From positions 1 through 33,646 of the forward strand of contig CAJXEC010000015.1 of the NCBI GenBank assembly GCA_913052165.1: DNA of 33,646 nucleotides, written 5' to 3'. Source of the stretch: an uncultured Rhodospirillaceae bacterium (GTDB lineage Bacteria > Pseudomonadota > Alphaproteobacteria > MPNO01 > UBA2964). The notes beneath the pieces are model-generated. The model was not told the origin of the DNA. It saw nothing but the letters and a program-made list of their open reading frames with translations, and did not search any database. Each line of letters opens with the position of its first letter. Position 1 is the stretch's first letter. Positions 10,379 through 30,742 of the stretch are shown here, one piece after another. The translations under genes were made by a program, and so were the position numbers.

Positions 10379-10744
10379 ATGCAGTGGACAAATGAAAGAG
10401 TAGATATTCTTACGAGGCTTTGGGCAGAGGGTCTGTCGGCAAGGCAGATTGCAACGGAATTAGGTGGAGTGACGCGCAATGCAGTTATTGGAAAAGCACA
10501 TCGGTTAAATTTACAGCGTGGTCAACCTGTTCCGGAGCCAAAACCCATACCGAAACCCCCGGTTATACAAGAACCTCCTCCCATCAACCATCCAGATATA
10601 AAGCCATGGATGTGCAGATGGCCGACGGAGGGTCTGGGCCGTCACGGATTAAGTATATGTGGCAAGACATCGCAACCTGGGCGTCATTATTGCGCTGAGC
10701 ATTTGACAATGGCGTATTTGCAGCGAAAGCGTCACGTCGCCTAA
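10379..10744 (+). CDS. gcrA: GcrA family cell cycle regulator
   Basis: 121 residues, shorter than Caulobacter GcrA. GcrA binds sigma-70 RNA polymerase and activates promoters carrying CcrM-methylated GANTC sites, driving S-phase genes. The helix-turn-helix N-terminus WTNERVDILTRLWAEGLS followed by GGVTRNAVIGKAHRLNL is nearly the family consensus. A proline-rich linker (about 43-75) precedes the polymerase-binding domain with CRWPTEGLGRHGLSICG and GRHYCAEHLTMAY. AAGGGG lies about ten bases before the ATG. The family is restricted to Alphaproteobacteria, so this gene is the best taxonomic marker in the window. Confidence 0.94.
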   Translation: MQWTNERVDILTRLWAEGLSARQIATELGGVTRNAVIGKAHRLNLQRGQPVPEPKPIPKPPVIQEPPPINHPDIKPWMCRWPTEGLGRHGLSICGKTSQPGRHYCAEHLTMAYLQRKRHVA

Positions 10745-13117: not shown

Positions 13118-14794
13118 ATGATAAAATCAACACAGATTGATCCGGTGACCGTGCAGGTGCTTAGAAACAAGGTCTCAAGTCTAGTCGATGAGATGCATTA
13201 CCATTTTTACCGTTCGGGGTACTCGACAATTATAAGGGAGTCCAAAGATTTTAGCTGTGTGATTTTGGATCGGGATGGAAAGCTAATTGTTCCGCCTCCG
13301 ATGTTTTTTCACGGTTTAGCCTATCGGAGGTTTGTGGAACGGGTTTTCGAAGTATACGAGCCCGATGAGATCAACGACGGCGATATGTTTGTGTCAAACC
13401 ACCCGTATGAAGCGGGGATGCCACATGTTTCTGATATGGGGTTTATCGCTCCGGTTTTTTTTGAGGGGGAGCTTATAGCTTGGAGCGGTACAATTGCTCA
13501 TAAAGCAGATATTGGCGGAACCAACCCCGGGAGTACGTCAGCTAATTCGACTGAATTGTATCATGAAGGACTTCTATTGCCCCCGATGAAATATGTTCGA
13601 CAAGGTATCGAAGACGGGGATGTGGAACGCATAATTCTAGGTAACTCTCGCCATCCGGATTTGGTCAGCGGTGATATTGGAGCGCAGGTAGCAGCGACCC
13701 AGATGGGGGTTGCCCGAATGAAGGAGAATGCAGAACGTTTTGGGGGTCAGATCATTTCAGATGCCTTCGAAGTAATTTTAAAGGGAGCTGCTGAAGAACT
13801 GAAGGCTGCTATTTCTGCTCTACCGAATGGAACCTCGTCCGCAGTTGGCTACATGGATGATGACGGTGTTGATCGTGAAACACCTGTAAAATTTGCAGTG
13901 ACGATTACGGTAGATGGAGACTGCGCCACTTTTGACTTCTCTGACGCGGGACCTCAGGCCAAGGGGCCGGTAAATTTGCGGCCATCAATGGTAGAGTGTT
14001 GCGTCTTTTACTGCTTGGTTGGCGCTTTAGGGGCTGATCTCCAGTTTAACGGCGGGATGATTGATGTTGTCGATATCAAATACGCTCCCAATACAGTAAC
14101 AAATGCGGCGCCACCTGCGCCAGTTTCGAGCTATCAAAAGTCAAATCTTCGCCTGGTTGATGTGATTTTAGAAGCTATGGCTCATTTCGCTCCTGAAAGA
14201 GCCATCGCGGGGTCTGGCTCGTCTGGTTCACTGCTTGTATCTTGGCAAGGAGGGGGCAGGGAAGGCCACTCGACCATGCAATACGAAATTTTTGGCTCGG
14301 CTTACGGAGGTGGTCAGGGTCACGATGGGTGTTCTATGACCGCAACCCACCTTTCTAATTTACACATAACACCAATCGAAATTCTAGAATCAGAATTCCC
14401 GTGCCGCGTAACTGAAATGTCTGTGATCCCTGACTCTGGGGGACCGGGAGAGTATCGGGGGGGACTCGCGTTTCGAAGACGCTACGAATTACTTCAAGAT
14501 GCTCTTGTTGTTCGTCGTTATGAAAAGGCTAAGTTTCCGGCGACAGGGACGTCAGGTGGAAATGACGGCCGGAAAAGTCGGTTTGTGAGAGTAGGCGCAA
14601 ATGGAAACGAGACAGATCTCCCAGCTGCGGGCCGCTACGAGATGAACGCAGGGGAGGGGTTCTTTATCGATAAGGCTGGTGGCGGTGGTTATGGAGACCC
14701 TAAAAAACGTGATCCGGCGGCTATAATCTCTGATATAGCGGAAGGTTACGTATCGATTCAGGGTGCCAAGCGCGATTATGATTATGACGCGTAA
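13118..14794 (+). CDS. hyuB: Hydantoinase/oxoprolinase family protein, subunit B (HyuB)
   Basis: 558 residues, the B subunit that works with HyuA in ATP-dependent opening or carboxylation of a ring amide or ketone. The signature N-terminus IDPVTVQVLRNKVSSLVDEM, then DMFVSNHPYEAGMPHVSDMG with the probable metal ligands, and GTIAHKADIGGTNPGSTS follow in the expected order. The later FDFSDAGPQAKGPVN and the glycine-rich SGSSGSLLVSW and IPDSGGPGEYRGGL motifs complete the family layout. AGAAGG upstream of the ATG and the one-base gap after hyuA show coupling. The C-terminus (GGGGYGDPKKRDP) is normal for the family, so the gene is complete. Confidence 0.93.
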   Translation: MIKSTQIDPVTVQVLRNKVSSLVDEMHYHFYRSGYSTIIRESKDFSCVILDRDGKLIVPPPMFFHGLAYRRFVERVFEVYEPDEINDGDMFVSNHPYEAGMPHVSDMGFIAPVFFEGELIAWSGTIAHKADIGGTNPGSTSANSTELYHEGLLLPPMKYVRQGIEDGDVERIILGNSRHPDLVSGDIGAQVAATQMGVARMKENAERFGGQIISDAFEVILKGAAEELKAAISALPNGTSSAVGYMDDDGVDRETPVKFAVTITVDGDCATFDFSDAGPQAKGPVNLRPSMVECCVFYCLVGALGADLQFNGGMIDVVDIKYAPNTVTNAAPPAPVSSYQKSNLRLVDVILEAMAHFAPERAIAGSGSSGSLLVSWQGGGREGHSTMQYEIFGSAYGGGQGHDGCSMTATHLSNLHITPIEILESEFPCRVTEMSVIPDSGGPGEYRGGLAFRRRYELLQDALVVRRYEKAKFPATGTSGGNDGRKSRFVRVGANGNETDLPAAGRYEMNAGEGFFIDKAGGGGYGDPKKRDPAAIISDIAEGYVSIQGAKRDYDYDA

Positions 14795-15229: not shown

Positions 15230-16288
15230 TTACTTCCCAAATATCATCTTTCTGCCTCTTTCCTGCACGGCTTTCGGAGCAGCCATCAGATCAGATACAA
15301 TTTTTGCGATTTTGGGTCCAGATATCGGATTGACTTCTAAACCTCGTTTGTATGCGTCCTTGTAGAACTTTTTGTCTTTTACGACCTTATTGAAGGATTT
15401 TCTGAGAACCGGAACCAACCACTGCGGGGCAGCAGGAGGTAAAACTAGCGATCTGCCTATAATAGAGGCCGATCCCAATAAATCCGCAATTTGTTTATCA
15501 GTCTCAGTTTTCATTAAATCCCTGATCATTGGAACCTTTTCAATGCCCTTTTGAGGGGTATAACCGCTTTGCGCTACAGGAAGTGCAATCGATTTACCAT
15601 TCGGCCCTATCCCATCTTTAAACCAATGGGGACGACCACTTTCCCAGGCCACCCAACCCATGGCTCCACCCTGGGTTTCTTTTTGTTCAACGGACAATTG
15701 CATTCTCTTTGAACCCTTGTACCCGGTTACAATTTTCATTTTTGTCCCAAGTAAACTGTTCATCAATCTAGGAATTAGGAATGTTGGAGAGCCCTTTCCG
15801 CTCGAAGCCATGATGACTTGTTTGGTTTTCATTTGGCCCCAATTCGTTACTCCACTATCTCTGCGAATAACGACGGCATTGTTTTGCCCGAAAACCCGTC
15901 CCAGCCAGTGAAAATCTTGCGGTTTGAATTTTACCTTCGTCGGGCGCAGTACGGCGGAAGCAACCGACATTTCTGGTGGCATCAGGAGGTTTAAGCCATT
16001 CGCTGGCATCACATTTGCCGCGTAATTTGCTGCCTTTAAACCACCTGCACCGGGCATGTGCTGCACCACGATGTTTGGCTTTCTGGGTACGTATTTGCCC
16101 ATGTGCTCTGCCAATAGCAGAGAAGTGCGGCCATATGTGCCGCCAGAACCATACCCCACGAGTATTGTTATCGTCCTCCCGCGGTAAAGTGACTTAGCTT
16201 TTTTGGCACTGGCAAAGGCCTCGCTTATTGGACCACTCGCTACGCAGATAGCAAATGCCAAGCCAAAAAACTTCACTATTGTTTGCAT
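15230..16288 (-). CDS. Bug/TctC-type tripartite tricarboxylate transporter substrate-binding protein
   Basis: About 352 residues from the chosen start. A signal peptide is evident (MQTIVKFFGLAFAICVASG, cleaved around EAFASA), so the protein is periplasmic. The mature start KSLYRGRTITILVGYGSGGTY followed by RKPNIVVQHMPGAGG and AANYAANV is the hallmark of the Bug family, which bind carboxylates, often aromatic ones, for TctAB permeases. The frame is open to 16330, but the ATG at 16288 has GGGAG nine bases upstream and puts the signal peptide at the N-terminus. It follows the amidohydrolase gene after 84 bases on the same strand. No tctA or tctB membrane genes are in the window, so it is an orphan binding protein. 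Confidence 0.88.
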   Translation of the reverse strand: MQTIVKFFGLAFAICVASGPISEAFASAKKAKSLYRGRTITILVGYGSGGTYGRTSLLLAEHMGKYVPRKPNIVVQHMPGAGGLKAANYAANVMPANGLNLLMPPEMSVASAVLRPTKVKFKPQDFHWLGRVFGQNNAVVIRRDSGVTNWGQMKTKQVIMASSGKGSPTFLIPRLMNSLLGTKMKIVTGYKGSKRMQLSVEQKETQGGAMGWVAWESGRPHWFKDGIGPNGKSIALPVAQSGYTPQKGIEKVPMIRDLMKTETDKQIADLLGSASIIGRSLVLPPAAPQWLVPVLRKSFNKVVKDKKFYKDAYKRGLEVNPISGPKIAKIVSDLMAAPKAVQERGRKMIFGK

Positions 16289-16372
16289 TAATTTACTCCC
16301 AATGATTTGTTGTGTGACTACACCATACAAAACTTGAATAAGATATCCAGGTATTTTTTGAAATTTTGATGT

Positions 16373-17419
16373 TTATAGTCCGTAAAGCCGCCTCGAATTT
16401 TCATCCAAGATTTTATCAGCCGAGTTTGAAGGAATTTTTCCATCGGTCCTCAATTTTCGTAAAGCCTGGATTTCTGTCGAAGTGTCATTGTGGCCATAAT
16501 CGGTGCCAACAACGATATTATCGTCGCCAACAGTATCTATGATGTAATCTAGATCGTCGGTAACCTGACAGGCGATGTAGATATTATTGTCACCAAGTGG
16601 GTTTTCACCAACATCCCTTCCCATGCGGGAAAGACGAAGGTCTAGGTCGTTTAACGCGTATGGAACCCATTGCGCGCTCAGTTCAACAAAACCCCACCTC
16701 ACTTTAGGAAACTTTCCGGGTAAGTCATTCCAAATTAAGTCGTGAAAAGCTCCAACCCCCGATAACTTGAATCTATTGAAGCCAGGATCTGAGCGGTATG
16801 TTTCATGAACAGTAAAACTTCCCACTCCCGAATGCAGCACAATGGCAAGGTCTAGTTCCTCCGCCATTTCGTAAAATGGAAAAAAGTAAGGATCAGATAG
16901 CATCCGGTCGGTTTCCATAGCTCTGATAAAAATTCCACATGCCCCATTCTCTTTTCCAAAAATTAATTCTTCTCTGACTTTATCCATCGCTAGCAGAGGA
17001 GGGCACACCACCCAACGGAGTGCTTCTGGAGCTGCCTTATTAATCTCAGCAAGCCAGCGGTTATAGCTGTAACAAATCGCATAATCGAGCTCAGCATTCA
17101 TGGTCAGCGGGCGCAGAAAAAGCGTTGGAAATAGCACCTGAATATCGATTTCCAATTCTTTCATATGATCAATTCGCGCCTGAATATCTGTCATTTCGCG
17201 CGCCGCCTCGGAGGTATCCAGGCCCACGTTGAATTGTTTATTGTGAAGCCTATTATCAACGACCCAAAACTCCCGAATGACATTGCCACTGCTGCCTAAG
17301 GTCGTTTCTCCGCTTTGTTGGTTGACAACAAAAGGTGTGTGCCGCTTAAGATTTGGTGGCATATATTCCCATGTTCTTGGCGTCTCCAGCACGTGAGCGT
17401 CTGCGTCAATCGTAGCCAT
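16373..17419 (-). CDS. Amidohydrolase family protein, ACMSD-like metal-dependent decarboxylase/hydrolase
   Basis: 348 residues, TIM-barrel amidohydrolase-2 type, the family of 2-amino-3-carboxymuconate-6-semialdehyde decarboxylase and gamma-resorcylate decarboxylase. The metal motif near the N-terminus reads ATIDADAHVLET, DxDxH rather than the commoner HxH, as in many environmental members. The second-strand histidine is in LAIVLHSGVG and the C-terminal catalytic aspartate in NIVVGTDYGHND. The substrate is probably an aromatic or muconate-type carboxylate, by family only. The start at 17419 is supported by AGGAGA upstream. It shares an operon with the Bug-type binding protein, is divergent from the molybdopterin-subunit gene, and may be part of one uptake-and-degradation unit. 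Confidence 0.88.
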   Translation of the reverse strand: MATIDADAHVLETPRTWEYMPPNLKRHTPFVVNQQSGETTLGSSGNVIREFWVVDNRLHNKQFNVGLDTSEAAREMTDIQARIDHMKELEIDIQVLFPTLFLRPLTMNAELDYAICYSYNRWLAEINKAAPEALRWVVCPPLLAMDKVREELIFGKENGACGIFIRAMETDRMLSDPYFFPFYEMAEELDLAIVLHSGVGSFTVHETYRSDPGFNRFKLSGVGAFHDLIWNDLPGKFPKVRWGFVELSAQWVPYALNDLDLRLSRMGRDVGENPLGDNNIYIACQVTDDLDYIIDTVGDDNIVVGTDYGHNDTSTEIQALRKLRTDGKIPSNSADKILDENSRRLYGL

Positions 17420-17442
17420 TTATCTCTCCTAATGCATTTTGA

Positions 17443-17457
17443 TCGGATCTTATCCGA
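17443..17457. promoter_or_regulatory. Candidate operator between divergent catabolic genes
   Basis: A perfect inverted repeat TCGGAT-ctt-ATCCGA lies 24 bases before the amidohydrolase start within the 171-base divergent spacer. A second small repeat GCCC-tttt-GGGC is at 17535-17546. The position suits a GntR- or MarR-type regulator controlling both directions, but no regulator gene is nearby. Confidence 0.3.
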
Positions 17458-17590
17458 GTGGTATGTCTTGCCAACCCCTAAGAAGTATATAAGCCGTTTG
17501 TTGTTTGGTTGCTAATGGCGGATGGACGGCTGTTGCCCTTTTGGGCCAGACTCTTAAAATTTATTTAAATAATTTTGATAGGGAATTGCC

Positions 17591-19912
17591 ATGCCTCGCT
17601 ACTCCGTCAGTCAGCCTGTTCGTCAACTGGAAGCTCCAAGGCTATTGAAGGGTCAGGGGAAATACACCGATGACGTGGCACTGCCGAACCAGGCATTTGC
17701 GATCTTTCTAAGGTCGCCGTATGCCCATGCAGAAATCAAGAAAATTGACATCGCCAAAGCCGAAGCCATGCCGGGGGTACTAAAAATTTTGACCGGAGAG
17801 GATTATCAAGCGGATAATTTGGGCCCGGTAAGAGGTATTTCCCCATTTAAAAAACGAGATGGATCACCGATGTATCGGCCGGATCGCCCTGCGCTCGCAA
17901 AAAATAGGGTTTTGCATGTCGGCCACCTAGTCGCTATGGTGGTTGCAGAGACAGTTTATCAGGCAAAGGATGCGGCCGAGGCCATACTTGTCGATTATGA
18001 ATCGCTTCCTGCAAACGTCTCCACTGCCGAGGCGAATTTAGGCTCTGTGCCTGACCTTTACGAAGATTGCCCACAAAATGAACCGGTCTACAGAGAACAT
18101 GGCGATGCAAGTGCGGTAGATGCAGCGATTGAGCGTGCAGCACATGTCGTCACTGGCACCTTTCCAGTAAATCGGGTGGCCGCGAATTCAATGGAACCAC
18201 GCGCTGTAAATGCGTCCTACGAACCTGGACGAGGGCACTATAATGTTTTTGCTTGCTTACAGCGCCCCTACGTCTGGCGGACGATGATGTGTAAGCACAT
18301 TTTTAAGATTCCCGAGAGCAAGATGACGATTATCGCTGGAGATGTTGGTGGATCTTTCGGTATGAAAGGAGGACTTTACCCCGAAGTTCCTCTGGTTGTG
18401 TGGGCATCAAAAAAGATTGGTCGACCTGTAAAATGGACCTGTGAGCGTTCGGAGGGGCACGTAGCTGATGATCAGGCGAGAGACATGCATGTCGAAGGTA
18501 CCCTCGCTTTGGATGAAAACGGCAAATTCTTGGGTCTAAGATTAGTTTCTAACAATAATGTCGGCGCTTTCATTACAATGATAGGTTTCCTCTCAACCAA
18601 TGGCGTCGCGAGCGCCGTCACCGGACCCTATTCTACTCCCTCGGTTCACGGGGTGGGTCGGGCTGTGCTTACCAATACTGTGCCAGTTTCCAATTATCGA
18701 GCGCCCGGCGGAGCCCCATCAGCCTATGTGATCGAGCGTATGGTGGATATAGCTGCCGCGGAGATGGGGATTGATCCAGCTGAGATCCGAAAACGCAATC
18801 TAATACCGGCAGAACAAATGCCTTACCGCTGCCCAACCGGAGAAACTTACGATTGTGGTGATTTTGAAAAAGTTTTGCATAAATGTCTGAAGACCGCAGA
18901 CTATAAGGGTGCTCAAAAGCGCAGAGAGGCCGCGCGTTCCCAAGGTTTTTTATACGGAATTGGGGTTTCGATGGCGGTCGATCCGAGTGCTGGGCCTTCG
19001 CCGGAGACGGCTGAGTTGCGATTTGATCCGGGGGGCGATTTGACCATTTTGTGCGGAACTACCGCTGGAGGGCAGAGTCATGAAACGATTTATACTCAGA
19101 TTGTAAGTGAAAAACTGGGGATCGACTCTGAACGCATAACCGTCATTGAAGGTGACACCAGCAAGCTGTCATGGGGCACCGGCACGGGGGCTGCGCGAAG
19201 TGCGACGATTGGAGGAACGGTTGTTTTCCGAGCGGCGGAAAAGATTATTGACAAGGCTAAGCGTATCGCAGCCCATATGCTTGAAGCTGCAGCAGACGAT
19301 ATAGAGTTCAAAGATGGGGTTTTTTGTATTGCAGGGACTGACCGAGAGGTAACTATTTCTAAGGTTACGGAGGCCGCTTTTTTGCCAAATCAACTCCCGC
19401 CAGATCTGGAGATTGGCTTGTATGAAACAGCTACTTGGTCTCCAGAGGTATCCAATGTTCCAAATGCTGCTAACCTTTGTGAGGTCCAGATCGATCCTGA
19501 TACAGGCGTGGCTCAGATAAAAAGGTATTCTTCGGTTCATGATGTGGGCGCCGAATTAAACCCCCTTCTCGTTGACGGCCAAATGCATGGCTCTATTGCG
19601 CAGGCGGCCGGCCAAGCCCTTATGGAGAATATGGCCTACGACCCAGTCAACGGCCAAGTGCTATCGGGTTCCTTTATGGACTACGCAATGCCAAGGGCAG
19701 ATAATTTTTGTGGATTTGAGCTAAATAGGCACCCCATACCTACATCTTCAAACCCGTTGGGCGTAAAAGGTGCTGGAGAGACAGCTACCGTTGCGGGGCT
19801 CCCGGCGGTGATGAATGCTATAAATGATGCTTTGTTACCTTTAGGTATTACTAATATTTCAATGCCAGCGACCTCAGAAAAGATTTGGCAAGCGATCCAA
19901 ATGCAGAATTAA
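17591..19912 (+). CDS. Xanthine dehydrogenase family molybdopterin-binding (large) subunit
   Basis: 773 residues, the usual size of a CoxL/XdhB-type large subunit carrying the molybdenum cofactor. It opens with the hammerhead domain (RLLKGQGKYTDDVALPNQ). Cofactor-binding motifs: GDVGGSFGMKGG at about 251-262, NYRAPGGAPSAYVIER at about 366-381, GTTAGGQSHETIYTQI near 490, and the active-site glutamate in VKGAGETATVAGLPA at about 723-737 (the GVGEPG region). CO dehydrogenase's AYRCSFR loop is absent, so it is not a true CO oxidiser; an N-heterocycle or aldehyde hydroxylase is more likely. The FAD and 2Fe-2S subunits usually encoded alongside are missing. GGGAAT precedes the ATG. Confidence 0.93.
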   Translation: MPRYSVSQPVRQLEAPRLLKGQGKYTDDVALPNQAFAIFLRSPYAHAEIKKIDIAKAEAMPGVLKILTGEDYQADNLGPVRGISPFKKRDGSPMYRPDRPALAKNRVLHVGHLVAMVVAETVYQAKDAAEAILVDYESLPANVSTAEANLGSVPDLYEDCPQNEPVYREHGDASAVDAAIERAAHVVTGTFPVNRVAANSMEPRAVNASYEPGRGHYNVFACLQRPYVWRTMMCKHIFKIPESKMTIIAGDVGGSFGMKGGLYPEVPLVVWASKKIGRPVKWTCERSEGHVADDQARDMHVEGTLALDENGKFLGLRLVSNNNVGAFITMIGFLSTNGVASAVTGPYSTPSVHGVGRAVLTNTVPVSNYRAPGGAPSAYVIERMVDIAAAEMGIDPAEIRKRNLIPAEQMPYRCPTGETYDCGDFEKVLHKCLKTADYKGAQKRREAARSQGFLYGIGVSMAVDPSAGPSPETAELRFDPGGDLTILCGTTAGGQSHETIYTQIVSEKLGIDSERITVIEGDTSKLSWGTGTGAARSATIGGTVVFRAAEKIIDKAKRIAAHMLEAAADDIEFKDGVFCIAGTDREVTISKVTEAAFLPNQLPPDLEIGLYETATWSPEVSNVPNAANLCEVQIDPDTGVAQIKRYSSVHDVGAELNPLLVDGQMHGSIAQAAGQALMENMAYDPVNGQVLSGSFMDYAMPRADNFCGFELNRHPIPTSSNPLGVKGAGETATVAGLPAVMNAINDALLPLGITNISMPATSEKIWQAIQMQN

Positions 19913-19942
19913 CTGGTCTTTGATCGCAGTTTGCAAAAGGTG

Positions 19943-20971
19943 CTAGGTGCGCCATTCTAGAGTTGTCTCTTTTAGCGGATTTTTAAACTCTTTGCCATCA
20001 TCTTCCGTGCGCGCCCACTCGTTTTTTATACGGAAATACCATTTGGCTTGCTGATCAGGCTGACCCGCCAGTCGCAAGGGTGGGTGCCACTGCAATCCCT
20101 TTGATTGCTTCATAAAAGCGGTTTGATCCTGCTTTAAAAAAGTTCTGGCGAAATGACGAACTACGGGCTTTAGGAAATTTGCCCACTTCATTGACCACCA
20201 CATCATATGCGTTGTTAGTGTATTATTTTCATTTATCGGGGTGCACGCGGTCATACCGCAATAAAAATTTTTCCCTGCCTTAATCTGTTCAATTCGAATT
20301 CCTGGAAGTGCAAACCAAATTCTTACTTCGGGAGCTCCTCCAATTAGCCTGTAAATTTTTGAGTTTTTAGAGGCCAGATGCGGAAGCATCTCAAAGCCCA
20401 GCTGGGATGGTTTAAATTTTTTTTCTTTCTTGGTTCTTCCGGAGGGCTTCCGCCAAAACCAGCTCTCATGAACATGCGGTGTATGAGCCGGGTCTATGAG
20501 CCCGACTACGGCATGGTCAATATTGACCGGAAACTCTAGCACGTGACTTACCTGAGGGCCATGGTTTTCGACCTCCGGGACGGTCGGTGGGTCTACATTT
20601 TGACCATCACCATCGCCAAGCCACACCCAAATCAGACCCTGATACTCTTTGATTGGATAAGTTCGCACAGAAATTTTTGATAGATCAATCTCTGTTTTAT
20701 CCGCTAGGGATGGGATGGATGTGCAGAGCCCGTTTGTTGAAAAAGACCAGCCGTGATAGCAGCATTGGACCTCTTCCCCAATGATTTTACCCTCAGAAAG
20801 GGGAATGCCTCTGTGTGGGCAGTTATCTTGAAGAGCGAAAACTTTACCCGACTGAGTGCGACCTAAAACCATGGGGTGTTTGCAGATTTGGCGATGGATT
20901 AACTGCCCAGTCTTAATTGAGCTGCTCGCACTAGCAAAATACCAAATGTTGGTTAGAAAAGATCGATCCAT
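19943..20971 (-). CDS. Rieske non-heme iron oxygenase, alpha (terminal oxygenase) subunit
   Basis: 342 residues, close to the single-subunit vanillate demethylase, pheophorbide oxygenase or phthalate-oxygenase-like group. The N-terminal Rieske domain has NCPHRGIPLSEG (about 47-58) and QCCYHGWSF (about 69-77), giving the CxH...CxxH cluster site. The mononuclear iron site is in DHAVVGLIDPAHTPHVH at about 150-167 (D-x2-H-x4-H). Such enzymes hydroxylate or demethylate aromatic rings using electrons from a ferredoxin reductase; none is encoded in the window. Convergent with the molybdopterin subunit gene, 30 bases apart. A ribosome-binding site GGGAG lies about 14 bases before the ATG. Confidence 0.92.
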   Translation of the reverse strand: MDRSFLTNIWYFASASSSIKTGQLIHRQICKHPMVLGRTQSGKVFALQDNCPHRGIPLSEGKIIGEEVQCCYHGWSFSTNGLCTSIPSLADKTEIDLSKISVRTYPIKEYQGLIWVWLGDGDGQNVDPPTVPEVENHGPQVSHVLEFPVNIDHAVVGLIDPAHTPHVHESWFWRKPSGRTKKEKKFKPSQLGFEMLPHLASKNSKIYRLIGGAPEVRIWFALPGIRIEQIKAGKNFYCGMTACTPINENNTLTTHMMWWSMKWANFLKPVVRHFARTFLKQDQTAFMKQSKGLQWHPPLRLAGQPDQQAKWYFRIKNEWARTEDDGKEFKNPLKETTLEWRT

Positions 20972-21174
20972 CAGAAAAGAACTAGCTCCCTTAAATAATA
21001 TTTTGGCGCCCTGAAAGACAAATATCTTGGTAACTTAATAATATTGCCTCGAAAAATGACAGAAGAGAGAGTGGTTTCAAACAAAATTTTTACCCTCCGT
21101 TTTATTGATGTTCTGTGCGAACCACTGCTTACAGGTTTTTAAAGGCTTAAATCCAAAGTCAGAATTTAATCCAT
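20972..21174. other. Spacer between the Rieske gene and M24 pseudogene
   Basis: About 200 bases, AT-rich, expected to hold the Rieske-gene promoter on the minus strand. The minus strand of 21077-21200 carries an open stretch with protein-like wording (DFGFKPLKTCKQWFAQN) that I cannot assign; it overlaps the pseudogene start and could be another gene relic. Confidence 0.3.
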
Positions 21175-22151
21175 TTGAACGGCCATATGAATTATCTTCT
21201 CTCGAAACTAGAGCGCTCAAAAAAGGGGTGGCAGTTTTCAGGACCGAGGAACAAAAAAATGGCTGATCTGGCCAAGTCTCAGGGGCTTGATGCTTTACTT
21301 GCAACTAGCTCTGAAAATTTTGCTTATCTATCAGGTCTCGCGGTGCCATCTTACAAATCTCAGCGCTAACGACCCTCAACGTTGTAGTTGAGACCAGACT
21401 GTTCCGCAAGCGTCTTTACCGCTGATATGGAGGCAAATGCTGTCCAGAAAAAATTACCTGAAGTTCCTGTTACCGCTTGGGGTGAGTTTACGGAAATTTC
21501 AAAAGGCGTTCTGGCCCAAATGCTTGTTAATCATGGAATTGTCGGAGGACTCATTGGTTTGGAGATGGACGACCTGCAAGCCCCAGGTTTAGAATGCCTA
21601 AAGGTTATTTCCCCTCGGTGATATTTGTTCCCCGACAAGATCTTTTTAGCCGAGCAACGATTATCGAAACCCCGAGAGAAATCGATGCTCTTAACATACT
21701 CCAGAGAATTTTAGACTAAAGCATACCCGAGCGCTTTTACATTGTTGCAGTGGGGTCCTCTGAAATGGACATCGCCTCTGCTTTGACGCACGAAATTTGC
21801 GCTCGCGGCGCGCGAGATTTTAAATTCATAATCATTGCGACCGGTGAGCGCAGTAAATGAACAAATGTTGGGCCGACGGGAGGGCTTTTGAAGGACGGGG
21901 ATATTTGCAGAGGAGAGATTTTTTCTAGCATCGATGATTATCATGCCTCGGTTTGTCTCATTGCGGTAGTTCAAAAGTCGCCCGGACATGCGGAAAGAAT
22001 CTGCAAAATACAGTCGGATGCCACAAAACGTCTGGTTGAGCTCATCAGCCCCAGACCTAGCTTGAGAGAAATTTATGAGGCCTATCTAAAGATGATTGCA
22101 AAACTCAAGTTACCGCTGATCTGTCCATTTGCGGTTTTTGAAAAACCCTAA
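21175..22151 (+). pseudogene. Decayed M24 family metallopeptidase (creatinase / Xaa-Pro aminopeptidase type)
   Basis: An M24 protein can be followed through two frames. Frame 1 (21175-21620) reads MADLAKSQGLDALLATSSEN, AYLSGLAVPS, DMEANAV, VPVTAWGEFTE and GLIGLEMDDL; it is broken by TAA at 21367-21369 and TAG at 21385-21387. A single frameshift near 21618 then moves to frame 0, which reads FVPRQDLFSRATIIETPREI, MDIASALTHEICARGARDF, TNVGPTGGLLKDGDICRGEI and AERICKIQSDATKRLVELI, with in-frame TAA at 21717-21719 and TGA at 21858-21860. The frame stops at 22151 after LKLPLICPF, so the C-terminal part with the GHGIG histidine and glutamate ligands is lost. One frameshift, four nonsense codons and a truncation show inactivation, fairly recent given how readable it is. 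Confidence 0.87.
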
Positions 22152-22271
22152 AAGAGCCCAAAACTTTGACCACAAGGACTCGCTAAGATTTGGGTATCAG
22201 ATTGGCCAAACCGGTGCTAAGAAATAGACAAAGCTACGAAATCTAGGACTTTGGCGAGGGAGATCGGGGAA

Positions 22272-23267
22272 ATGGGGCGAGAAAATATTAAGCTGAGCAT
22301 CGCTACGACTGATTACGACCATTTTCGAGATTTTCGAACTGGAGAGGTCAAAGCGCAAGGAATTGATCATAGCTGGTCTGTGCTCAGTCATCACGAATGC
22401 TTTGCTCGTTTTACCGCTAATAGGGAATGGGATGTGTCAGAGTTGAGTTTTGCTAAATTTTCAACCCAGGTAACGCGAGATGATTCCGATATTATTGGAT
22501 TGCCAGTGGTATGCTCAAGGTTATTTCGGTTCTCTAGTTTCTATATTAACAAAAACGCTGGAATTAAAACTGTAGAAGATCTCAGGGGAAAGCGCGTTGG
22601 CTCACCGGAATGGGCTCATTCAGCTGCAGTCTACATGCGCGGTTGGATGCATAATGATTGCGGCGTCAAACTGACAGACGTTCACTGGTATCAAGCGGGC
22701 GCAAATGCACCGGGCAGAATGGAAAAAGTCGAATTAAACCTACCCGAAGGTGTTGAAATTACCCGTATCATCGATAAATCGTTGTCAGAGCTTTTGGCCG
22801 CTGGAGAAATTGATTGCGCAATTATTGCTCGCCCCCCCACATGTTTTTTAGAGGGTCATCCAGATGTGACACGACTTTTTCCAAATTATGTCGAGATGGA
22901 GGAGAATTACTACGGCGATACTGGTGTTTGGCCGATAATGCATATAATTGCGATGCAGAGGAAGGTCCTTCAGGAAAATCCGTGGGTTGCAAGAAATCTT
23001 TTAAATGCCTTCAACGAGTCAAAAAATCGTGCTGTGCAGAGGATGTTGGATCCAGCGGTGTCTCGGTACCCTTTGCCATGGATCCCCGCGTACGGGGAGA
23101 GAATGTGTAATACTTTTGGTAAGGACCCATTCCCATTTGGGATCGAGGAAAACAGAGCGACATGTGAACAAATGCTCTTATACACTTACCAACAGGGAAT
23201 TGCACATAAACACGTTAAACCAGAGGATATCTTTCCCGAAGGAATTATGACAGCGGTAGTTGTTTAA
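22272..23267 (+). CDS. 4,5-dihydroxyphthalate decarboxylase-like protein (periplasmic-binding-protein-like fold)
   Basis: About 331 residues. It resembles proteins annotated as 4,5-dihydroxyphthalate decarboxylase (Pht5), which have a type-2 solute-binding-protein fold: IKLSIATTDYDHFRDFRTGEV, a VSELSFAKFSTQV strand, VEDLRGKRVGSPEWAHSAAVY and SLSELLAAGEIDCAIIARPP. There is no signal peptide, which argues for a cytosolic enzyme rather than an ABC binding protein. The frame is open back to a TTG at 22251, but the ATG at 22272 has GAGGGAGA just upstream. It is the only intact plus-strand gene between the M24 relic and the GMC gene. The Rieske oxygenase nearby makes an aromatic-carboxylate role attractive, as in phthalate degradation, where oxygenation precedes decarboxylation; this is inference. 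Confidence 0.8.
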   Translation: MGRENIKLSIATTDYDHFRDFRTGEVKAQGIDHSWSVLSHHECFARFTANREWDVSELSFAKFSTQVTRDDSDIIGLPVVCSRLFRFSSFYINKNAGIKTVEDLRGKRVGSPEWAHSAAVYMRGWMHNDCGVKLTDVHWYQAGANAPGRMEKVELNLPEGVEITRIIDKSLSELLAAGEIDCAIIARPPTCFLEGHPDVTRLFPNYVEMEENYYGDTGVWPIMHIIAMQRKVLQENPWVARNLLNAFNESKNRAVQRMLDPAVSRYPLPWIPAYGERMCNTFGKDPFPFGIEENRATCEQMLLYTYQQGIAHKHVKPEDIFPEGIMTAVVV

Positions 23268-23466
23268 AACCAATTTTTAAGTGTGGGGGCGCTCAATACT
23301 GACATTTCCTCGGAGAGGCTCTAGGTTTTTCCGTTGCAGGCACCTCGGGTCAGTGTAGGCTGCAACGCAGGCTCATACTTATGCAGGTGTCCATAAACCG
23401 GTAATCGAGGTATCGGAGACTGAAGAGGAACGTTGCTTGGCTTCAGAGGTCACCAGAGAGTTAAGC

Positions 23467-23502
23467 AACAATCAAAAAATAGTTTTATTACAATTGATTG
23501 TT
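23467..23502. repeat. 9-bp inverted repeat at the end of the GMC gene
   Basis: AACAATCAA (23467-23475) and TTGATTGTT (23494-23502) are perfect inverted copies spanning the stop codon of the minus-strand GMC gene. It could act as a weak terminator, but there is no proper U-run beyond the stem. Confidence 0.45.
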
Positions 23503-25140
23503 GAGAATCATATCAGCGGCTTTCTCAGCAATCATTATCGTAGGCGCATTCGTTGCTCCACCAATTAAATCAGGCATTACAGAGGCATCTACGATCCGCA
23601 GGCTGTCGAGCCCGCGGACGCGAAGAGTGTGGTCACAAACTGCGGTTGGATCACTTTTTGGACCCATACGACATGTTCCTACTGGGTGATGCACTGTTAT
23701 CATTGTTTTTCGCACATGGGCCTTCAATGCCTCATCGCCATCATCTCCGTCCCCAGGAATTAACTCAGGGCCTGCAAAATTTTTCATTGAGGCTTGGGAA
23801 ACTAATTTTCTTGCGATTCGGAGCCCGTCAAGCATCACGCGCCATTCTTCTTCTTCCTCTAAAAAGGCTTGACTTATTTTTGGCGCAACTGCCGGGTCGC
23901 TAGAGTTTAATGCTATATAACCTCTGCTTTGAGGCCTCATCGGCATAACTCTGACGTTGAAGGCATCGTTGAAAGCTTTTTTAAAGGGTGGGAAATAAGG
24001 ACTAGCGGTATTAGTTGCACCCATCCAGAAAAGAAGCTGGGCATCTGGCACTGGTTCGGAAGGTCGCGTTTTTATAAAGGCAGTGATCCCAAATGGGAGA
24101 TCTGACGCAAACCCGCCAAAGCCTAGGTAGGACTTTATTAGTGAGAGTGCCACTTTATCCAACCGCATTTCCCGATGAAAAGTGCCACGATTTTTTCGAC
24201 GAAAATTTATTGATGCAGAGGTATGGTCAATAAGGTTTTTTCCAACTCCCGATAGCTCGTGATGGACTTCCAGTCCCACGCTCTTGATTTGTTCCGATGC
24301 TCCAATACCGGACAACATCAGTATTTGAGGAGTGTTGATCGAACCGCTCGCTAATATCACCTCTCGGGAGGCCTCAACAGTGATCCTCTTTTGACCTTTC
24401 TGGTAGGTTATTCCTTTCGCTTTTTTACCCTCAAAGTTGATTTTTTCTACTAAGGCATTGATTTCGAGTTTTAAATTAGCTCGCTTGAGAGATGGCTTAA
24501 GAAAAGCTTGAGCTGAGGAACACCTGCGACCTTTGTGAATTGTAGCTTGAATGCGAGCAAAGCCCTCCTTGTTTGATCCGTTGTAATCATCAGTCCAACC
24601 AATTTGCATTTCTTTGCCCGCGTTTATGAAAGCATCGCAGATAGGGTCGTCAAAAGTTGAGTAGGTTGTGTTTAACTCACCACCCGAACCCCTATGGGTA
24701 TCTTCCCCTCTCTCCCAGTTTTCTGACTTTTTGAAGTATTTGAGAATGTCTTTATATGCCCAACCGGGATTGCCAAAGGATTCCCAACGATCGTAGTCAA
24801 CATCATGGCCGTGGTAGTAGGCCATCGCGTTTATGCTTGAACAGCCGCCAATAACTTTCCCTCGGGCACACTCGATAACTCGATTGTCCATAGTCTCCGA
24901 AGGTTCCGCAAAATAGTTCCAATCGTGCATTCGATTTTTCAGTATTTGTCCCCATCCAAGCGGAATGTGTATCCATGGATCTAAATCTCTTCCTCCAGCT
25001 TCTAGCAGGAGTACTCGGTTTTTCGAGTTTAATGTAAGACGATTAGCCAGCGCGCAGCCAGCTGATCCGCCTCCGACAACAATAAAATCAAAATTTTCGT
25101 TATCCATCTGTCTACTCATTGACTGTTTGACGTTGATCAT
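23488..25140 (-). CDS. GMC family flavin oxidoreductase (choline/alcohol dehydrogenase-like)
   Basis: About 550 residues, the normal size for choline dehydrogenase and related FAD alcohol dehydrogenases. Dinucleotide-binding FDFIVVGGGSAGCALANRLT lies near the N-terminus, LLEAGGRD follows, the GMC signature 1 region GKVIGGCSSINAMAYYHGH comes near residue 90, and signature 2 is in ILASGSINTPQILMLSGIG. The active-site histidine is in VHHPVGTCRMG, with DASVMPDLIGGATNAPTIM at the C-terminus. The open frame reaches 25176; the ATG at 25140 has GGAG just upstream (short spacing), and an ATG at 25107 starting MDNENFDF is also possible. It oxidises an alcohol to an aldehyde; the substrate is unknown. 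Confidence 0.92.
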   Translation of the reverse strand: MINVKQSMSRQMDNENFDFIVVGGGSAGCALANRLTLNSKNRVLLLEAGGRDLDPWIHIPLGWGQILKNRMHDWNYFAEPSETMDNRVIECARGKVIGGCSSINAMAYYHGHDVDYDRWESFGNPGWAYKDILKYFKKSENWERGEDTHRGSGGELNTTYSTFDDPICDAFINAGKEMQIGWTDDYNGSNKEGFARIQATIHKGRRCSSAQAFLKPSLKRANLKLEINALVEKINFEGKKAKGITYQKGQKRITVEASREVILASGSINTPQILMLSGIGASEQIKSVGLEVHHELSGVGKNLIDHTSASINFRRKNRGTFHREMRLDKVALSLIKSYLGFGGFASDLPFGITAFIKTRPSEPVPDAQLLFWMGATNTASPYFPPFKKAFNDAFNVRVMPMRPQSRGYIALNSSDPAVAPKISQAFLEEEEEWRVMLDGLRIARKLVSQASMKNFAGPELIPGDGDDGDEALKAHVRKTMITVHHPVGTCRMGPKSDPTAVCDHTLRVRGLDSLRIVDASVMPDLIGGATNAPTIMIAEKAADMILNNQL

Positions 25141-25511
25141 TATGCTCCAAAGTCGTCTTTTGTTGGGGCAACCCAAAATTATACAGAAACCTTAACATTT
25201 AATAATCTAATTCATGTCCTTAATATTTTAATCCATGTGTAGGGAGGAAATTTACCAAATAGATAACAGCTCCCTTGTTTTCTCGCGATAGTGAGAACAA
25301 ATGAGCGTTTTGGTGAAGTTACTTGTTCCGCACTCTTTTTCTGCGAACATGGCCGTATAACTCCAACGATTTATACCAATAATTTTTGAAATTTCATAAA
25401 ACCTTTACAGTCATGCCGCTGTTCTATTACTTTGAGGTTCTAACGTCCCAATCATTGGATTTCTCCTTTCCCGTGAGCCCTAATCTAAGGCTTGACATTG
25501 TTGGACTCTTG

Positions 25512-26265: not shown

Positions 26266-27087
26266 ATGAAAAAGAGTTGGTTGAGCACTCTATTAATCTT
26301 GTTTTTTTCGTTGAGCCCGGCTAGCGCCTCGGAACGTTTATTGGTCTTGTCCTACGATGTTTATGTTGGAGGTATAAAGGTCGTTAAATTAGACTTGGAA
26401 GCTGACATAGGTTCTAGTCAGTATTCGGTGGATATAAATTTAAGGGAAGTTAAATTTTTCAGCATCTTTTTTTCCTGGGAGATGGACTTATCGTCTGAAG
26501 GAAAAATAATCGAAGGAGCTCCTATTCCGCGAAAGGCAAGTGTAACTTCCCGCTGGAAAGGAAAAGCTCGTCTGACCAAACTGAGATACGATGAAAATGG
26601 TGTTGTCAAATCTGCAAAAATATTTCCAGAAGAGACAGCAGTAATTAGGAGCCCAGTAACTGATCAGATGAAAAGAGGTTCTAGGGATCTATCTACGGGT
26701 TTATTGCACTTACTGCAAAAGCTTGATCTAACGGAGAAGTGTGCAATGCAGGAGCCTATCTTTGATGGAAAGTATGCATTTTTAATGAAGCTTGTGGGCA
26801 GAGAGAGAGTAAAACTGGGCGCCCACCGATTATCGGCGTACAAAGGGGATGCTTTAAAATGCAACTTTTTTATTGAGAAATTGGGGGGCTATCGGGTCGA
26901 CTCTAAGTATTCTGCCGAGCGTTTTAAAGAACCGATGAAAATATGGTTCGGGAAACCGTTCTCAAAATTTCTTTATTTCCCTATAAAGATGGAACTAGAA
27001 ACTAGTTTGGGTTGGCTCGTTGCTCATTTGACAAAAGCAGAATTTACGAACTTTGGGAATAAGCAACAGATTGGTCTCGGAGATTAG
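26266..27087 (+). CDS. DUF3108 domain-containing exported protein
   Basis: 273 residues. The signal peptide MKKSWLSTLLILFFSLSPASAS is followed by a beta-rich mature region starting LLVLSYDVYVGGIKVVKLDLEAD, the usual opening of DUF3108 proteins (YDVYxGGIxxG). Later GKYAFLMKLVGRERVKLG and the C-terminal MKIWFGKPFSKFLYFPIKME match the family pattern (IWLSxDxxRLPVRIE). It is probably periplasmic or outer-membrane linked; no biochemical role is established that I can name. The ATG is one base beyond a strongly initiated leader ORF. In this window it sits before glmU, placing it among envelope-precursor genes. Confidence 0.82.
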   Translation: MKKSWLSTLLILFFSLSPASASERLLVLSYDVYVGGIKVVKLDLEADIGSSQYSVDINLREVKFFSIFFSWEMDLSSEGKIIEGAPIPRKASVTSRWKGKARLTKLRYDENGVVKSAKIFPEETAVIRSPVTDQMKRGSRDLSTGLLHLLQKLDLTEKCAMQEPIFDGKYAFLMKLVGRERVKLGAHRLSAYKGDALKCNFFIEKLGGYRVDSKYSAERFKEPMKIWFGKPFSKFLYFPIKMELETSLGWLVAHLTKAEFTNFGNKQQIGLGD

Positions 27088-27197
27088 TGATCTCGAAAAC
27101 ATATTGTCATTTTTTGTGATTGTGCGGGATAGCGTCTGCTCGACTATTATATACCCATTCAGAAGATATTCTAATTTTAGTCATTAAAAGCGGGTAT

Positions 27198-28565
27198 ATG
27201 TTTATGAACGAGCGCAACCTTGCAGTTATCATTCTGGCGGCTGGTAAGGGCACCAGAATGAATTCGAAGATGCCCAAAGTCAATCATAAGCTAGCCGGAC
27301 GTCCCTTGATCGGACATCTGCTGGAAACCATCCAGTCAATGTCACCGGATCAGGTCATTACGGTAATCTCTGATGAGAAAAGTGACATTGCCAAACTAGC
27401 ATCGGATACCACCATTGCGCTACAAAACCCTCCTTTGGGGACCGGACATGCCGCTGCCGCAGCTTTACCTCTGCTAAAAAACAATTGTATTCAGGAGGTA
27501 TTGGTTGCTTTCGGTGATACGCCTTTTCTCACGGTTGAGACGATTGAAAGGATGCTTGAAAGACTGAGGGGACCCAGCGAACCCGCATTAGTGGTCTTGG
27601 GGTTTAGGCCCCCCAACGCTATGGAATATGGCAGGCTGGTAACTGATGAAAGCGGCCAACTAAAGAAAATTGTTGAGGCAAGGGATGCATCTACTCGTAT
27701 CCTTGAGATCGATCTTTGCAATGCCGGTATCATGGCTTTTGACGGAGCTCGATTTCCTGACCTTCTGGGTGCGATTGACAACGATAATGAGACGGGCGAG
27801 TACTATTTAACCGACGCCGTTGAGATCGCGCGAACTCAAGGTTGGAATTGTATCTCGATAGAAACTGATGATCCAAATGAAGTCATGGGGATCAATTCAC
27901 GAGCGGATTTGGCCCGTGCAGAAGCTATCTTGCAGCGAAAACTGCGCAGCGCGGCGATGGATAATGGGGTAACACTTATTGATCCGGAAACGGTTTGGTT
28001 ATGCTCGGATACCGAAATCGGCCAGGATGTAACCGTGGGACCAAATGTTTGGTTTGGACCCGGAGTTGTCGTACAGAGAAATGTTGAGATTAGACCATTT
28101 TGCCATATCGAGGGCGCCACAATAGAAGAGGGAGCAATTATCGGACCATTTGCCCGGCTGCGTCCTGGCGCGCAGATCGGTCACAATTCACATATCGGCA
28201 ATTTTGTCGAGATCAAAAAATCGGTTCTAAAGGATAAAGTCAACGCAAATCATTTATCATATATTGGGGATAGTTTCGTGGGCTCTGGTGCGAACATAGG
28301 CGCAGGAACAATTACCTGTAATTATAATGGTTTTTCTAAATTTCAAACTGAAATCGGAGAGGGTGCATTTATTGGTTCAAATACTTCTTTGATTGCCCCG
28401 ATAAAAATTGGTAAGGGCGCTATTACAGGAGCAGGATCTACCCTATCCGAGAGTATACCCGAAAATAGCCTTGCAATGACTAGGGCGAAAGCCACTATCA
28501 AATCCGGTTGGGCGGAGGAATTTCGCCTTCTTGAGGGCGCCAAGGTTAAAAAAACTAAGGATTAG
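27198..28565 (+). CDS. glmU: Bifunctional UDP-N-acetylglucosamine pyrophosphorylase / glucosamine-1-phosphate N-acetyltransferase
   Basis: 455 residues from this start, the same as typical GlmU. It acetylates glucosamine-1-phosphate and then adds UMP to make UDP-GlcNAc for peptidoglycan and lipid A. The N-terminal uridylyltransferase domain has VIILAAGKGTRMNSKMPKV, PLGTGHAAAAALPLL and FGDTPFL; the C-terminal left-handed beta helix carries hexapeptide repeats (VRPG-like turns in IGPFARLRPGAQIGHNSHIG) and the acetyl-CoA site region NHLSYIGDS, GANIGAGTITCNYNG. The frame extends to a TTG at 27120, but that would add 26 non-conserved residues; ATG 27198 (or 27204) starts just before the conserved fold. 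glmS follows after six bases. Confidence 0.96.
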   Translation: MFMNERNLAVIILAAGKGTRMNSKMPKVNHKLAGRPLIGHLLETIQSMSPDQVITVISDEKSDIAKLASDTTIALQNPPLGTGHAAAAALPLLKNNCIQEVLVAFGDTPFLTVETIERMLERLRGPSEPALVVLGFRPPNAMEYGRLVTDESGQLKKIVEARDASTRILEIDLCNAGIMAFDGARFPDLLGAIDNDNETGEYYLTDAVEIARTQGWNCISIETDDPNEVMGINSRADLARAEAILQRKLRSAAMDNGVTLIDPETVWLCSDTEIGQDVTVGPNVWFGPGVVVQRNVEIRPFCHIEGATIEEGAIIGPFARLRPGAQIGHNSHIGNFVEIKKSVLKDKVNANHLSYIGDSFVGSGANIGAGTITCNYNGFSKFQTEIGEGAFIGSNTSLIAPIKIGKGAITGAGSTLSESIPENSLAMTRAKATIKSGWAEEFRLLEGAKVKKTKD

Positions 28566-28571
28566 CTGAGA

Positions 28572-30448: not shown

Positions 30449-30742
30449 GTGACCATTGGGTCGAATGATTTAATCGCAGAACAAGAATACACCGAACAAC
30501 AACACCAGAATTATGAACTGATTAAATCCCTTCACGATCGTGGAATGGGATATCGGAAGATTGCACAATATCTAAACGAACAAGGTATCAAGACAGTTCG
30601 AGGGAACACTTGGAAGAACACTCAAGTCTTTTCAGTTCTCAAGAAATATCGTGCAAGACAAGAACGAATTCAGAATGTTCGATTAAGGGAACATCCCATC
30701 GAGATAAGTAAATTTGAATTGCAATGGATAAAAGATATTTAA
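30449..30742 (+). CDS. Small recombinase-domain-like DNA-binding protein (97 residues)
   Basis: The sequence SLHDRGMGYRKIAQYLNEQG followed by IKTVRGNTWKNTQVFSVLKK (about residues 29-68) is the helix-turn-helix-type 'recombinase' motif found after the catalytic domain in large serine recombinases (LxxxGxSYRxIAxxLNxxGIxTxRGxxW). No catalytic domain precedes it, and similar stand-alone short proteins are common in marine Alphaproteobacteria. It is probably a DNA-binding protein, role unknown. The only in-frame start is a GTG, with a stop upstream and no clear ribosome-binding site, so the N-terminus is uncertain and it might be a decayed fragment. It lies inside the inverted-repeat cassette. Confidence 0.65.
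   Translation: MTIGSNDLIAEQEYTEQQHQNYELIKSLHDRGMGYRKIAQYLNEQGIKTVRGNTWKNTQVFSVLKKYRARQERIQNVRLREHPIEISKFELQWIKDI

What the first reader, a model, noticed from the sequence alone, without database searches (positions are those of the whole stretch)
15230..25140. Possible aromatic or heterocyclic carboxylate degradation locus
A Bug-type binding protein, an ACMSD-like amidohydrolase, a molybdopterin hydroxylase subunit, a Rieske oxygenase, a 4,5-dihydroxyphthalate-decarboxylase-like protein and a GMC alcohol dehydrogenase lie within 10 kb, with hyuAB just upstream. Each belongs to a family that handles ring carboxylates or N-heterocycles. The combination does not match a textbook pathway, and both electron-transfer partners and a ring-cleavage dioxygenase are absent, so it may be a new or scattered route.
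Basis: inference. Interest (0 to 1): 0.52.

Follow-up and report, generated by a model that had tools for sequence, protein, structure and literature searches.

The report
Hydantoinase plus metal-oxygenase gene module
The stretch is not one aromatic-degradation pathway but a patchwork: a conserved four-gene set (a ring-opening enzyme pair, a binding protein and a likely oxygen-using metal enzyme mistaken for a hydrolase) beside unrelated enzyme genes that come and go in relatives.

Summary
All the named genes are present, but they are not one pathway. They fill a variable interval between gcrA and DUF3108-glmU-glmS. Two parts behave differently. (1) hyuA-hyuB, the Bug-type binding protein and the amidohydrolase form a unit: they stay together in 8 of 8 genomes that carry the amidohydrolase orthologue (74-78% identity or self). 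(2) The molybdenum-hydroxylase, Rieske, decarboxylase-like and GMC genes vary by genome; the decarboxylase is broken in the genus-mate, and an M24-peptidase gene is a remnant here. The main new point: the 'ACMSD-like amidohydrolase' carries all six metal ligands and the seventh acidic residue of the dinuclear oxygenases AibH2/PtmU3 (AROs), invariant in 17 of 17 homologues; ACMSD-type homologues in related genomes lack them. It is thus predicted to be an O2-dependent C-H hydroxylase, not a decarboxylase or hydrolase. Rieske (15-38 per genome) and Mo-hydroxylase genes (22-42) are so expanded in five genomes sampled that their co-occurrence says little about a pathway. Substrate unknown; activity untested.

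The parts
10379..10744 (+). gcrA, left housekeeping anchor of the variable interval
   Evidence: Pfam GcrA 7.4e-30; found once in 21 of 27 order genomes
11014..13116 (+). hyuA-like subunit (ATP-dependent hydantoinase/oxoprolinase family)
   Evidence: Pfam Hydantoinase_A; best PDB 7hk5 N-methylhydantoinase 1.1e-130, then 6yra 5-oxoprolinase; 68-81% in relatives at the same place
13118..14794 (+). hyuB-like subunit, one base after hyuA
   Evidence: Pfam Hydantoinase_B 1.1e-142; 73-80% in relatives
15230..16330 (-). Bug/TctC-like periplasmic binding protein, convergent with hyuB, same strand as and 42 bases beyond the ARO gene
   Evidence: weak phmmer to TTT binding proteins 7.1e-5; 44-76% at the same place in relatives, one or two copies
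16373..17419 (-). PF04909 protein predicted to be an amidohydrolase-related dinuclear oxygenase (ARO); ligands D7 H9 H196 E246 D307 H310, second-sphere D312
   Evidence: Pfam 2.8e-17; invariant residues match AibH2 ligands; best structures PtmU3 / DitZ / AibH2; 74-78% orthologues in 7 other genomes
17591..19912 (+). orphan molybdenum-hydroxylase large subunit (no CoxS/CoxM nearby)
   Evidence: Pfam MoCoBD; in a 29-row clade with no CoxS neighbour in any row; loop YRAPG as in 7dqx, not the CODH cysteine loop
19943..20971 (-). Rieske non-heme iron oxygenase, monooxygenase-like, intact
   Evidence: Pfam Rieske; invariant C51 H53 C70 H73 and H163 H168 D282 in 21 homologues; fold nearest SxtT/GxtA, guaiacol demethylase, dicamba monooxygenase
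21175..22151 (+). remnant of a creatinase/M24-peptidase-type gene, several frames, stops
   Evidence: ORF pieces; Creatinase_N and Peptidase_M24 fragments
22251..23267 (+). 4,5-dihydroxyphthalate-decarboxylase-like protein (likely start further in, near 22275)
   Evidence: 9jp7 E 2.9e-58; orthologues 78-83% in 12 order genomes
23488..25176 (-). GMC oxidoreductase, choline-dehydrogenase-like
   Evidence: Pfam GMC_N/GMC_C; 68% in the genus-mate at the same place; 48% in G013 at the same end of the interval
26266..30395 (+). DUF3108, glmU, glmS: right housekeeping anchor

Best explanation
The stretch is a variable interval between two housekeeping anchors (gcrA and DUF3108-glmU-glmS). Its one conserved functional unit is hyuA-hyuB > < Bug < ARO. 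Inferred working: the Bug protein binds a small imported compound; the ARO (Fe2 or Mn/Fe) hydroxylates a C-H bond using O2 and electrons from a Rieske-type ferredoxin encoded elsewhere; the HyuAB pair opens or cleaves a cyclic amide/ureide-type substrate or product with ATP. Shown here: the gene unit, its conservation, the ligand signature and the predicted fold. Inferred: substrate class, reaction order, electron donor. The Mo-hydroxylase subunit, Rieske oxygenase, decarboxylase-like protein and GMC enzyme are independent neighbours drawn from families most of which are expanded in these genomes, each probably with its own job.
For: ARO orthologue (74-78%, or self) with Bug and hyuB next to it in 8 of 8 genomes; hyuA also seen in 7 of 8, the G009 contig ending inside hyuB. 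hyuA/hyuB/ARO identity (mostly 73-80%) is above that of glmS, 62-68%. Seven ARO residues invariant in 17 of 17, with AibH2's spacing at both ends (Asp25-His27, Asp337-His340-Asp342); present in 43 of 46 full-length homologues in fetched loci, absent in two ACMSD-type ones. Profile search: best PDB sequences 8sm9 (4.7e-20) and PtmU3 (2.5e-19), ahead of ACMSD (2.5e-12). Interval cargo differs: the genus-mate has no amidohydrolase match of this kind anywhere at 1e-40, lacks it and the Mo gene at this place, and its decarboxylase copy is broken; G003, G007 and G011 carry other Rieske or Mo paralogues here.
Against: AROs of the AibH2 type have a small Rieske protein next door in 90% of cases by the literature; none is here. 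VIA Z-scores do not separate the ARO from ACMSD folds (32.8 against 31.3). hyuAB and Bug remain without the ARO in G001 and G012, so the unit can be split. No substrate is indicated. Most conservation evidence comes from one family (f1), six of the eight genomes being one genus (g3).
Confidence: 0.6

Rival explanations
1. One reading: the genes make one (new or scattered) aromatic or N-heterocyclic carboxylate degradation route, the Rieske and Mo enzymes hydroxylating, the decarboxylase and GMC finishing.
For: All are redox or decarboxylase families; such families cluster in G011 more than rotations allow; Rieske, broken decarboxylase and GMC lie together in the genus-mate; a second family has a Mo subunit end, amidohydrolase, LigXa-type Rieske, decarboxylase-like genes and hyuAB within 20 kb (L054).
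Against: Ortholog-level neighbourhoods differ for each gene; the Rieske is single-copy in 58 of 60 carrier genomes and shares no wide neighbour in 29 loci; no dihydrodiol-dehydrogenase-type, ferredoxin or ring-cleavage gene was recognised in the window; two genes at this place are decayed in one genome or the other.
Confidence: 0.12
2. The amidohydrolase is an ordinary mononuclear decarboxylase/hydrolase that works with HyuAB (for example removing a carboxylate before ring opening).
For: Same Pfam family; fold nearly as close to ACMSD (Z 31.3) as to AROs (Z 32.8); no small Rieske partner beside it.
Against: HxH is replaced by DxH, and Glu246, His310 and Asp312 are present and invariant; the literature says the acidic residue at the last position is kept only in binuclear members; the ACMSD-like homologues in related genomes read HHHSDFP and YHHHDFP at these sites.
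Confidence: 0.2
3. The interval is a neutral landing site: gene families that are abundant in these genomes land and decay there without any functional link, hyuAB-Bug-ARO being merely old neighbours.
For: 15-38 Rieske, 22-42 MoCo, 11-37 amidohydrolase and 11-19 decarboxylase-like genes in each of five genomes; two decayed genes; anchor distance 13-42 kb in six genomes.
Against: hyuA, hyuB and ARO are better conserved than glmS, and order is kept in 8 of 8.
Confidence: 0.15

Closest known systems
Amidohydrolase-related dinuclear oxygenases (AibH2, PtmU3, SfbO, TruffO, DitZ)
   Same: PF04909 fold; six ligands Asp-x-His, His, Glu, Asp, His plus acidic residue two after the last His, same spacing at both ends
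   Different: No adjacent small Rieske ferredoxin; linked instead to hyuAB and a Bug binding protein; only 16-22% identical to solved members in structural alignments
HyuAB / N-methylhydantoinase / 5-oxoprolinase / caprolactamase family
   Same: Both subunits, full domain set; hyuA nearest 7hk5
   Different: Far below the NCBIfam cut-offs of named members (caprolactamase alpha 539 of 1000 bits)
4,5-dihydroxyphthalate decarboxylase (9jp7) and the phthalate 4,5-dioxygenase pathway
   Same: The decarboxylase-like protein is a full-length homologue
   Different: The Rieske is nearer to monooxygenases (SxtT, guaiacol and dicamba demethylases) than to phthalate dioxygenase; no dihydrodiol dehydrogenase recognised; a family of 11-19 paralogues per genome
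CoxL-type molybdenum hydroxylases (CODH, 6-hydroxypseudooxynicotine dehydrogenase)
   Same: Large-subunit fold, cofactor loops and catalytic Glu motif
   Different: No CoxS/CoxM beside it; clade of 29 rows without CoxS neighbours

Membership tests
Amidohydrolase-related dinuclear oxygenase (ARO) | PF04909 domain and TIM-barrel fold like PtmU3/AibH2 | tested here: met
   Pfam 63.8 bits, cut-off 26.4; VIA Z 32.8 to 6omp over 323 residues, 2.9 A
Amidohydrolase-related dinuclear oxygenase (ARO) | Six metal ligands of AibH2 (Asp25 His27 His211 Glu265 Asp337 His340) | tested here: met
   D7 H9 H196 E246 D307 H310 invariant in 17 of 17; ligand list from PMC7782822 (passages)
Amidohydrolase-related dinuclear oxygenase (ARO) | Acidic residue at AibH2 Asp342, said to be conserved only in binuclear members | tested here: met
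   D312
Amidohydrolase-related dinuclear oxygenase (ARO) | Adjacent small Rieske ferredoxin (common, 90%; not strictly defining) | tested here: not met
   None in the window ORFs scanned with Pfam; small Rieske ORFs exist elsewhere in the genome
Amidohydrolase-related dinuclear oxygenase (ARO) | O2-dependent hydroxylation with Fe2 or Mn/Fe | not testable with these tools
   needs the protein
ACMSD / mononuclear PF04909 decarboxylases | HxH metal motif and no His/acid after the strand-8 Asp (motif recalled) | tested here: not met
   DxH, and D307-x-x-H310-x-D312
Aerobic CO dehydrogenase | CoxS and CoxM subunits with CoxL | tested here: not met
   No CoxS motif in the window, no CoxS/M relative by phmmer
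Aerobic CO dehydrogenase | Active-site Cys loop of form I CoxL (loop recalled) | tested here: not met
   NYRAPGG in the window against a YACSF loop in 8uem
Phthalate 4,5-dioxygenase pathway | Phthalate-dioxygenase-type Rieske enzyme with dihydrodiol dehydrogenase and decarboxylase | tested here: not met
   Only the decarboxylase-like protein fits; no dehydrogenase of that role recognised
Caprolactamase CapAB | NCBIfam curated cut-off | tested here: not met
   539 and 209 bits against 1000
TctC/Bug binding proteins | Family profile match | tested here: inconclusive
   No Pfam match at 0.001; phmmer 7.1e-5 to 7ndr

The most novel reading that the evidence does not exclude
A new oxidative route for a small cyclic nitrogen compound: a Bug protein captures it, a dinuclear (Mn/Fe or Fe2) amidohydrolase-fold oxygenase hydroxylates a C-H bond (perhaps next to N, as SfbO does with surrogate substrates), and an ATP-dependent HyuAB pair opens the ring. 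It would be carried by an alphaproteobacterial order in which this oxygenase family has multiplied.
Probability: 0.3. Interest if true: 0.65.

Novelty: new variant of a known kind. Interest (0 to 1): 0.45.

Why it matters
Dinuclear amidohydrolase-fold oxygenases were recognised only recently, few are characterised and their natural substrates are mostly unknown. A conserved link to an ATP-dependent ring-opening enzyme and a binding protein narrows the substrate class and gives a testable gene set. It also suggests that 'ACMSD-like amidohydrolase' labels in these genomes often hide oxygenases: 43 of 46 homologues checked carry the full signature (these loci were mostly fetched as homologues, so the fraction is not a genome-wide one). 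For annotation practice it is a warning: in genomes with dozens of Rieske and Mo-hydroxylase genes, finding such names side by side is weak evidence of a pathway.

Tried and rejected
Phthalate-type pathway: rejected (neighbourhoods, fold ranking). CO dehydrogenase: rejected (no partners, wrong loop). GMC as part of the unit: it keeps its place in the genus-mate and, at 48%, in G013, but no link to hyuAB was seen. M24 remnant: tblastx found no relative in the 19 loci searched. Plasmids: one weak ARO match (27.7%). Fold comparison alone does not separate ARO from ACMSD (Z within 1.5). Taxonomy by name: SP154 not in the NCBI dump. Papers: a search for marine decarboxylase/Rieske loci gave 6 papers and one for decarboxylase structures 4, searches for gene expansions gave 2, 0 and 0, one on hydantoinase/Bug 1, coxL searches, ARO searches (15 and 10 listed); among the titles listed none describes this module or an ARO expansion in such genomes. 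Read: PMC10811679 parts 1-2 of 3; PMC10401708 section 7 and passages; PMC7782822, PMC13040137 and PMC10773090 passages only.

Rows dropped or limits: positions were typed; second pieces of split genes were left out (Rieske 37 of 38 in G011); 38 of 42 MoCo genes of G011 were printed and used (list truncated). Several reference decarboxylases lying on the minus strand of their loci (among L036-L052) were translated on the wrong strand and are void; the window-type group still comes first. The Mo tree uses 57 ORFs of at least 600 aa out of 65 found; partners further than the fetched flanks (about 3 kb) would be missed. The Rieske regex missed members known from tblastn, so that script was used only for identities among those it found. 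The neighbour clustering rests on a simple ORF caller that misplaces genes in G+C-rich loci. In one search at most 5 candidates per genome were scored, so copy numbers there are lower bounds.
Full report
Observation. The window is one whole contig (C15) of a 2.48-Mb draft genome in 141 contigs. Domain checks of the window's main ORFs show ordinary housekeeping genes on both sides: speE, AdoMet decarboxylase, Sua5, SRAP and gcrA to the left; glmU and glmS, with DUF3108, to the right.

Neighbourhood in the genus-mate. G001 (contig C3 has the length of public record PAPV01000003, Rhodospirillaceae SP154, and gives the same matches) keeps hyuA, hyuB and the Bug gene beside gcrA, followed directly by the Rieske gene, whose two halves lie on two contig ends. 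On the other contig come a broken decarboxylase copy (pieces 42-52% identical, with stops) and the GMC gene (68%). The amidohydrolase and the Mo-hydroxylase are not at this place (contig ends meet inside the Rieske gene, so a short insertion there cannot be excluded), and the genome has no amidohydrolase match of this kind at 1e-40 at all.

Anchors. gcrA and glmS lie on one contig in 7 of the 27 genomes of the order; in 6 of these 7 they are 13-42 kb apart (in G024 gcrA is inverted), in the seventh, G017, about 71 kb. Intervals were compared by tblastn. G026's 13-kb interval shows none of the window's cargo. G003, G007 and G011 (genus g3) have gcrA-hyuA-hyuB-Bug-Bug-amidohydrolase and then other genes: Rieske enzymes (25-32% identical to the window's, or a LigXa-type one in G003) and, in G007 and G011, a Mo-hydroxylase (46%). 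G013, of another family, has a decarboxylase-like gene (33%) and GMC (48%) next to DUF3108. In G024 and G003 a LigXa-type Rieske with a short-chain dehydrogenase lies there (Rieske 70% identical to each other).

The conserved unit. The amidohydrolase orthologue (74-78%) exists in 7 other genomes: G002, G003, G005, G007, G008, G009, G011. In all 7 and in the window it is followed by a Bug gene and then hyuB; hyuA follows in all but G009, whose contig ends inside hyuB. Six of the eight belong to genus g3, so this is mainly three lineages (g1, g2, g3). hyuA, hyuB and the amidohydrolase are mostly 73-80% identical across genera, glmS 62-68%. G001 and G012 keep hyuAB and Bug without it. In two genomes (G003, G008) an AbrB-family membrane protein follows on the far side. 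Among 16 regions fetched around paralogous amidohydrolases, two (L155, L170) also have a Bug-like gene within about 3 kb.

What the amidohydrolase is. An alignment of 17 homologues has invariant D5, D7, H9, E12, H196, E246, D307, H310 and D312. AibH2's metal ligands are Asp25, His27, His211, Glu265, Asp337 and His340, with Asp342 in the second sphere; PMC7782822 (passages read) says an acid at that place is kept only in binuclear members. The spacing agrees exactly at both ends. In one search, 43 of 46 full-length homologues from fetched loci carry all seven; L158:3151 has Q at the last; L192 and L183 read HHHSDFP and YHHHDFP, the ACMSD pattern (recalled), which serves as an internal contrast. 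A profile search puts TruffO (8sm9) and PtmU3 first, ACMSD following about seven orders of magnitude weaker. The AlphaFold model (mean pLDDT 86.7) is closest to PtmU3, DitZ, 4dzi and AibH2 (VIA Z 32.8-32.2), but ACMSD follows at 31.3, so fold alone does not decide. The same genome has an ARO - small Rieske - ARO arrangement on contig C40 (L066 14201-17518), reminiscent of the aib gene cluster, and further small Rieske ORFs that could supply electrons.

The Rieske oxygenase. Homologues (E up to 1e-70) are in 60 of 385 class genomes, one match each in 58 of 60 (at most 5 candidates per genome scored). Cluster ligands and facial triad are invariant in 21 sequences, one cyanobacterial. In six alphaproteobacterial draft genomes it is flanked by the glnD-murJ-trpS-...-usp block, with nfu on the far side in most (domains from one of them, L017); in 29 loci no neighbour is shared widely. 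The model (pLDDT 88.6) is nearest to SxtT/GxtA, guaiacol and dicamba monooxygenases. This fits a stand-alone monooxygenase of unknown substrate.

The Mo-hydroxylase subunit. A tree of 57 large subunits places the window protein in a clade of 29 (support 100/99); none of the 29 has a CoxS gene within about 3 kb, while 13 of the other 28 do. Cofactor loops and the GAGE motif are kept. Neighbours of clade members are mixed: DHP-decarboxylase-like, SDR, alpha/beta hydrolase, AbrB. Whether partners are supplied in trans is open.

The decarboxylase-like protein. Its orthologue (78-83%) is in 12 genomes of three families, next to ABC transporter, EamA, GST, PrpD and ASST genes in f1/g3, and next to ADH, CobW, aldolase II, shikimate dehydrogenase and hyuAB genes in f3. 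The family has 11-19 matches in each of five genomes (a few are pieces of broken genes).

Chance. Families are expanded: Rieske 21/15/36/31/38, MoCo 30/22/36/41/42, Amidohydro_2 19/11/23/28/37, decarboxylase-like 11/12/14/19/18 in G000/G001/G004/G010/G011. In G011 they cluster beyond independent rotations, yet decarboxylase-Rieske and decarboxylase-Mo pairs within 5 kb are not significant (3 of 18 each, p 0.17 and 0.20); amidohydrolase-Rieske is (17 of 37 within 10 kb, p 0.001), as ARO-Rieske systems would predict.

Verdict. Observation confirmed; single-pathway reading not borne out; a smaller conserved module with a likely dinuclear oxygenase is the real content. Substrate, electron donor and activity remain inferences.

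Noticed in passing
window 17591-19912 and 28 other large subunits: A clade of molybdenum-hydroxylase large subunits without CoxS neighbours (0 of 29 against 13 of 28 outside the clade), expanded in these genomes. Either partners act in trans or these enzymes work without them.
   Followed up: partly
window 19943-20971; L015-L020; L072-L100: A Rieske monooxygenase family found in 60 of 385 class genomes, single-copy in 58 of them, without a shared neighbourhood; in six draft genomes it sits after usp in a housekeeping block. Function unknown.
   Followed up: partly
27 order genomes; five genomes: 4,5-dihydroxyphthalate-decarboxylase-like proteins multiplied to 11-19 per genome; a Mo large subunit lies about 2.3-2.4 kb (distance between typed positions) from such a gene at several places.
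   Followed up: partly
L066 14201-17518 (G000 contig C40): Two ARO-signature genes (418 and 415 aa) with a 144-aa Rieske ORF between them, like the aib hydroxylase and its Rieske partner.
   Followed up: partly
window 30700-33646: G+C falls to 26-31%; a C-5 cytosine methylase and a surface-adhesin-E-like ORF lie there: possibly a foreign island at the contig end.
   Followed up: no
L012 8383-11873 (G001): Genus-mate has DUF4856, a fatty-acid-hydroxylase family protein and an extracellular solute-binding protein between DUF3108 and GMC, absent here.
   Followed up: no
L106 9796-10833, L151 9025-10071: AbrB-family membrane protein (PF05145) on the far side of the ARO gene in G003 and G008; a possible transport partner for the Bug protein.
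   Followed up: no
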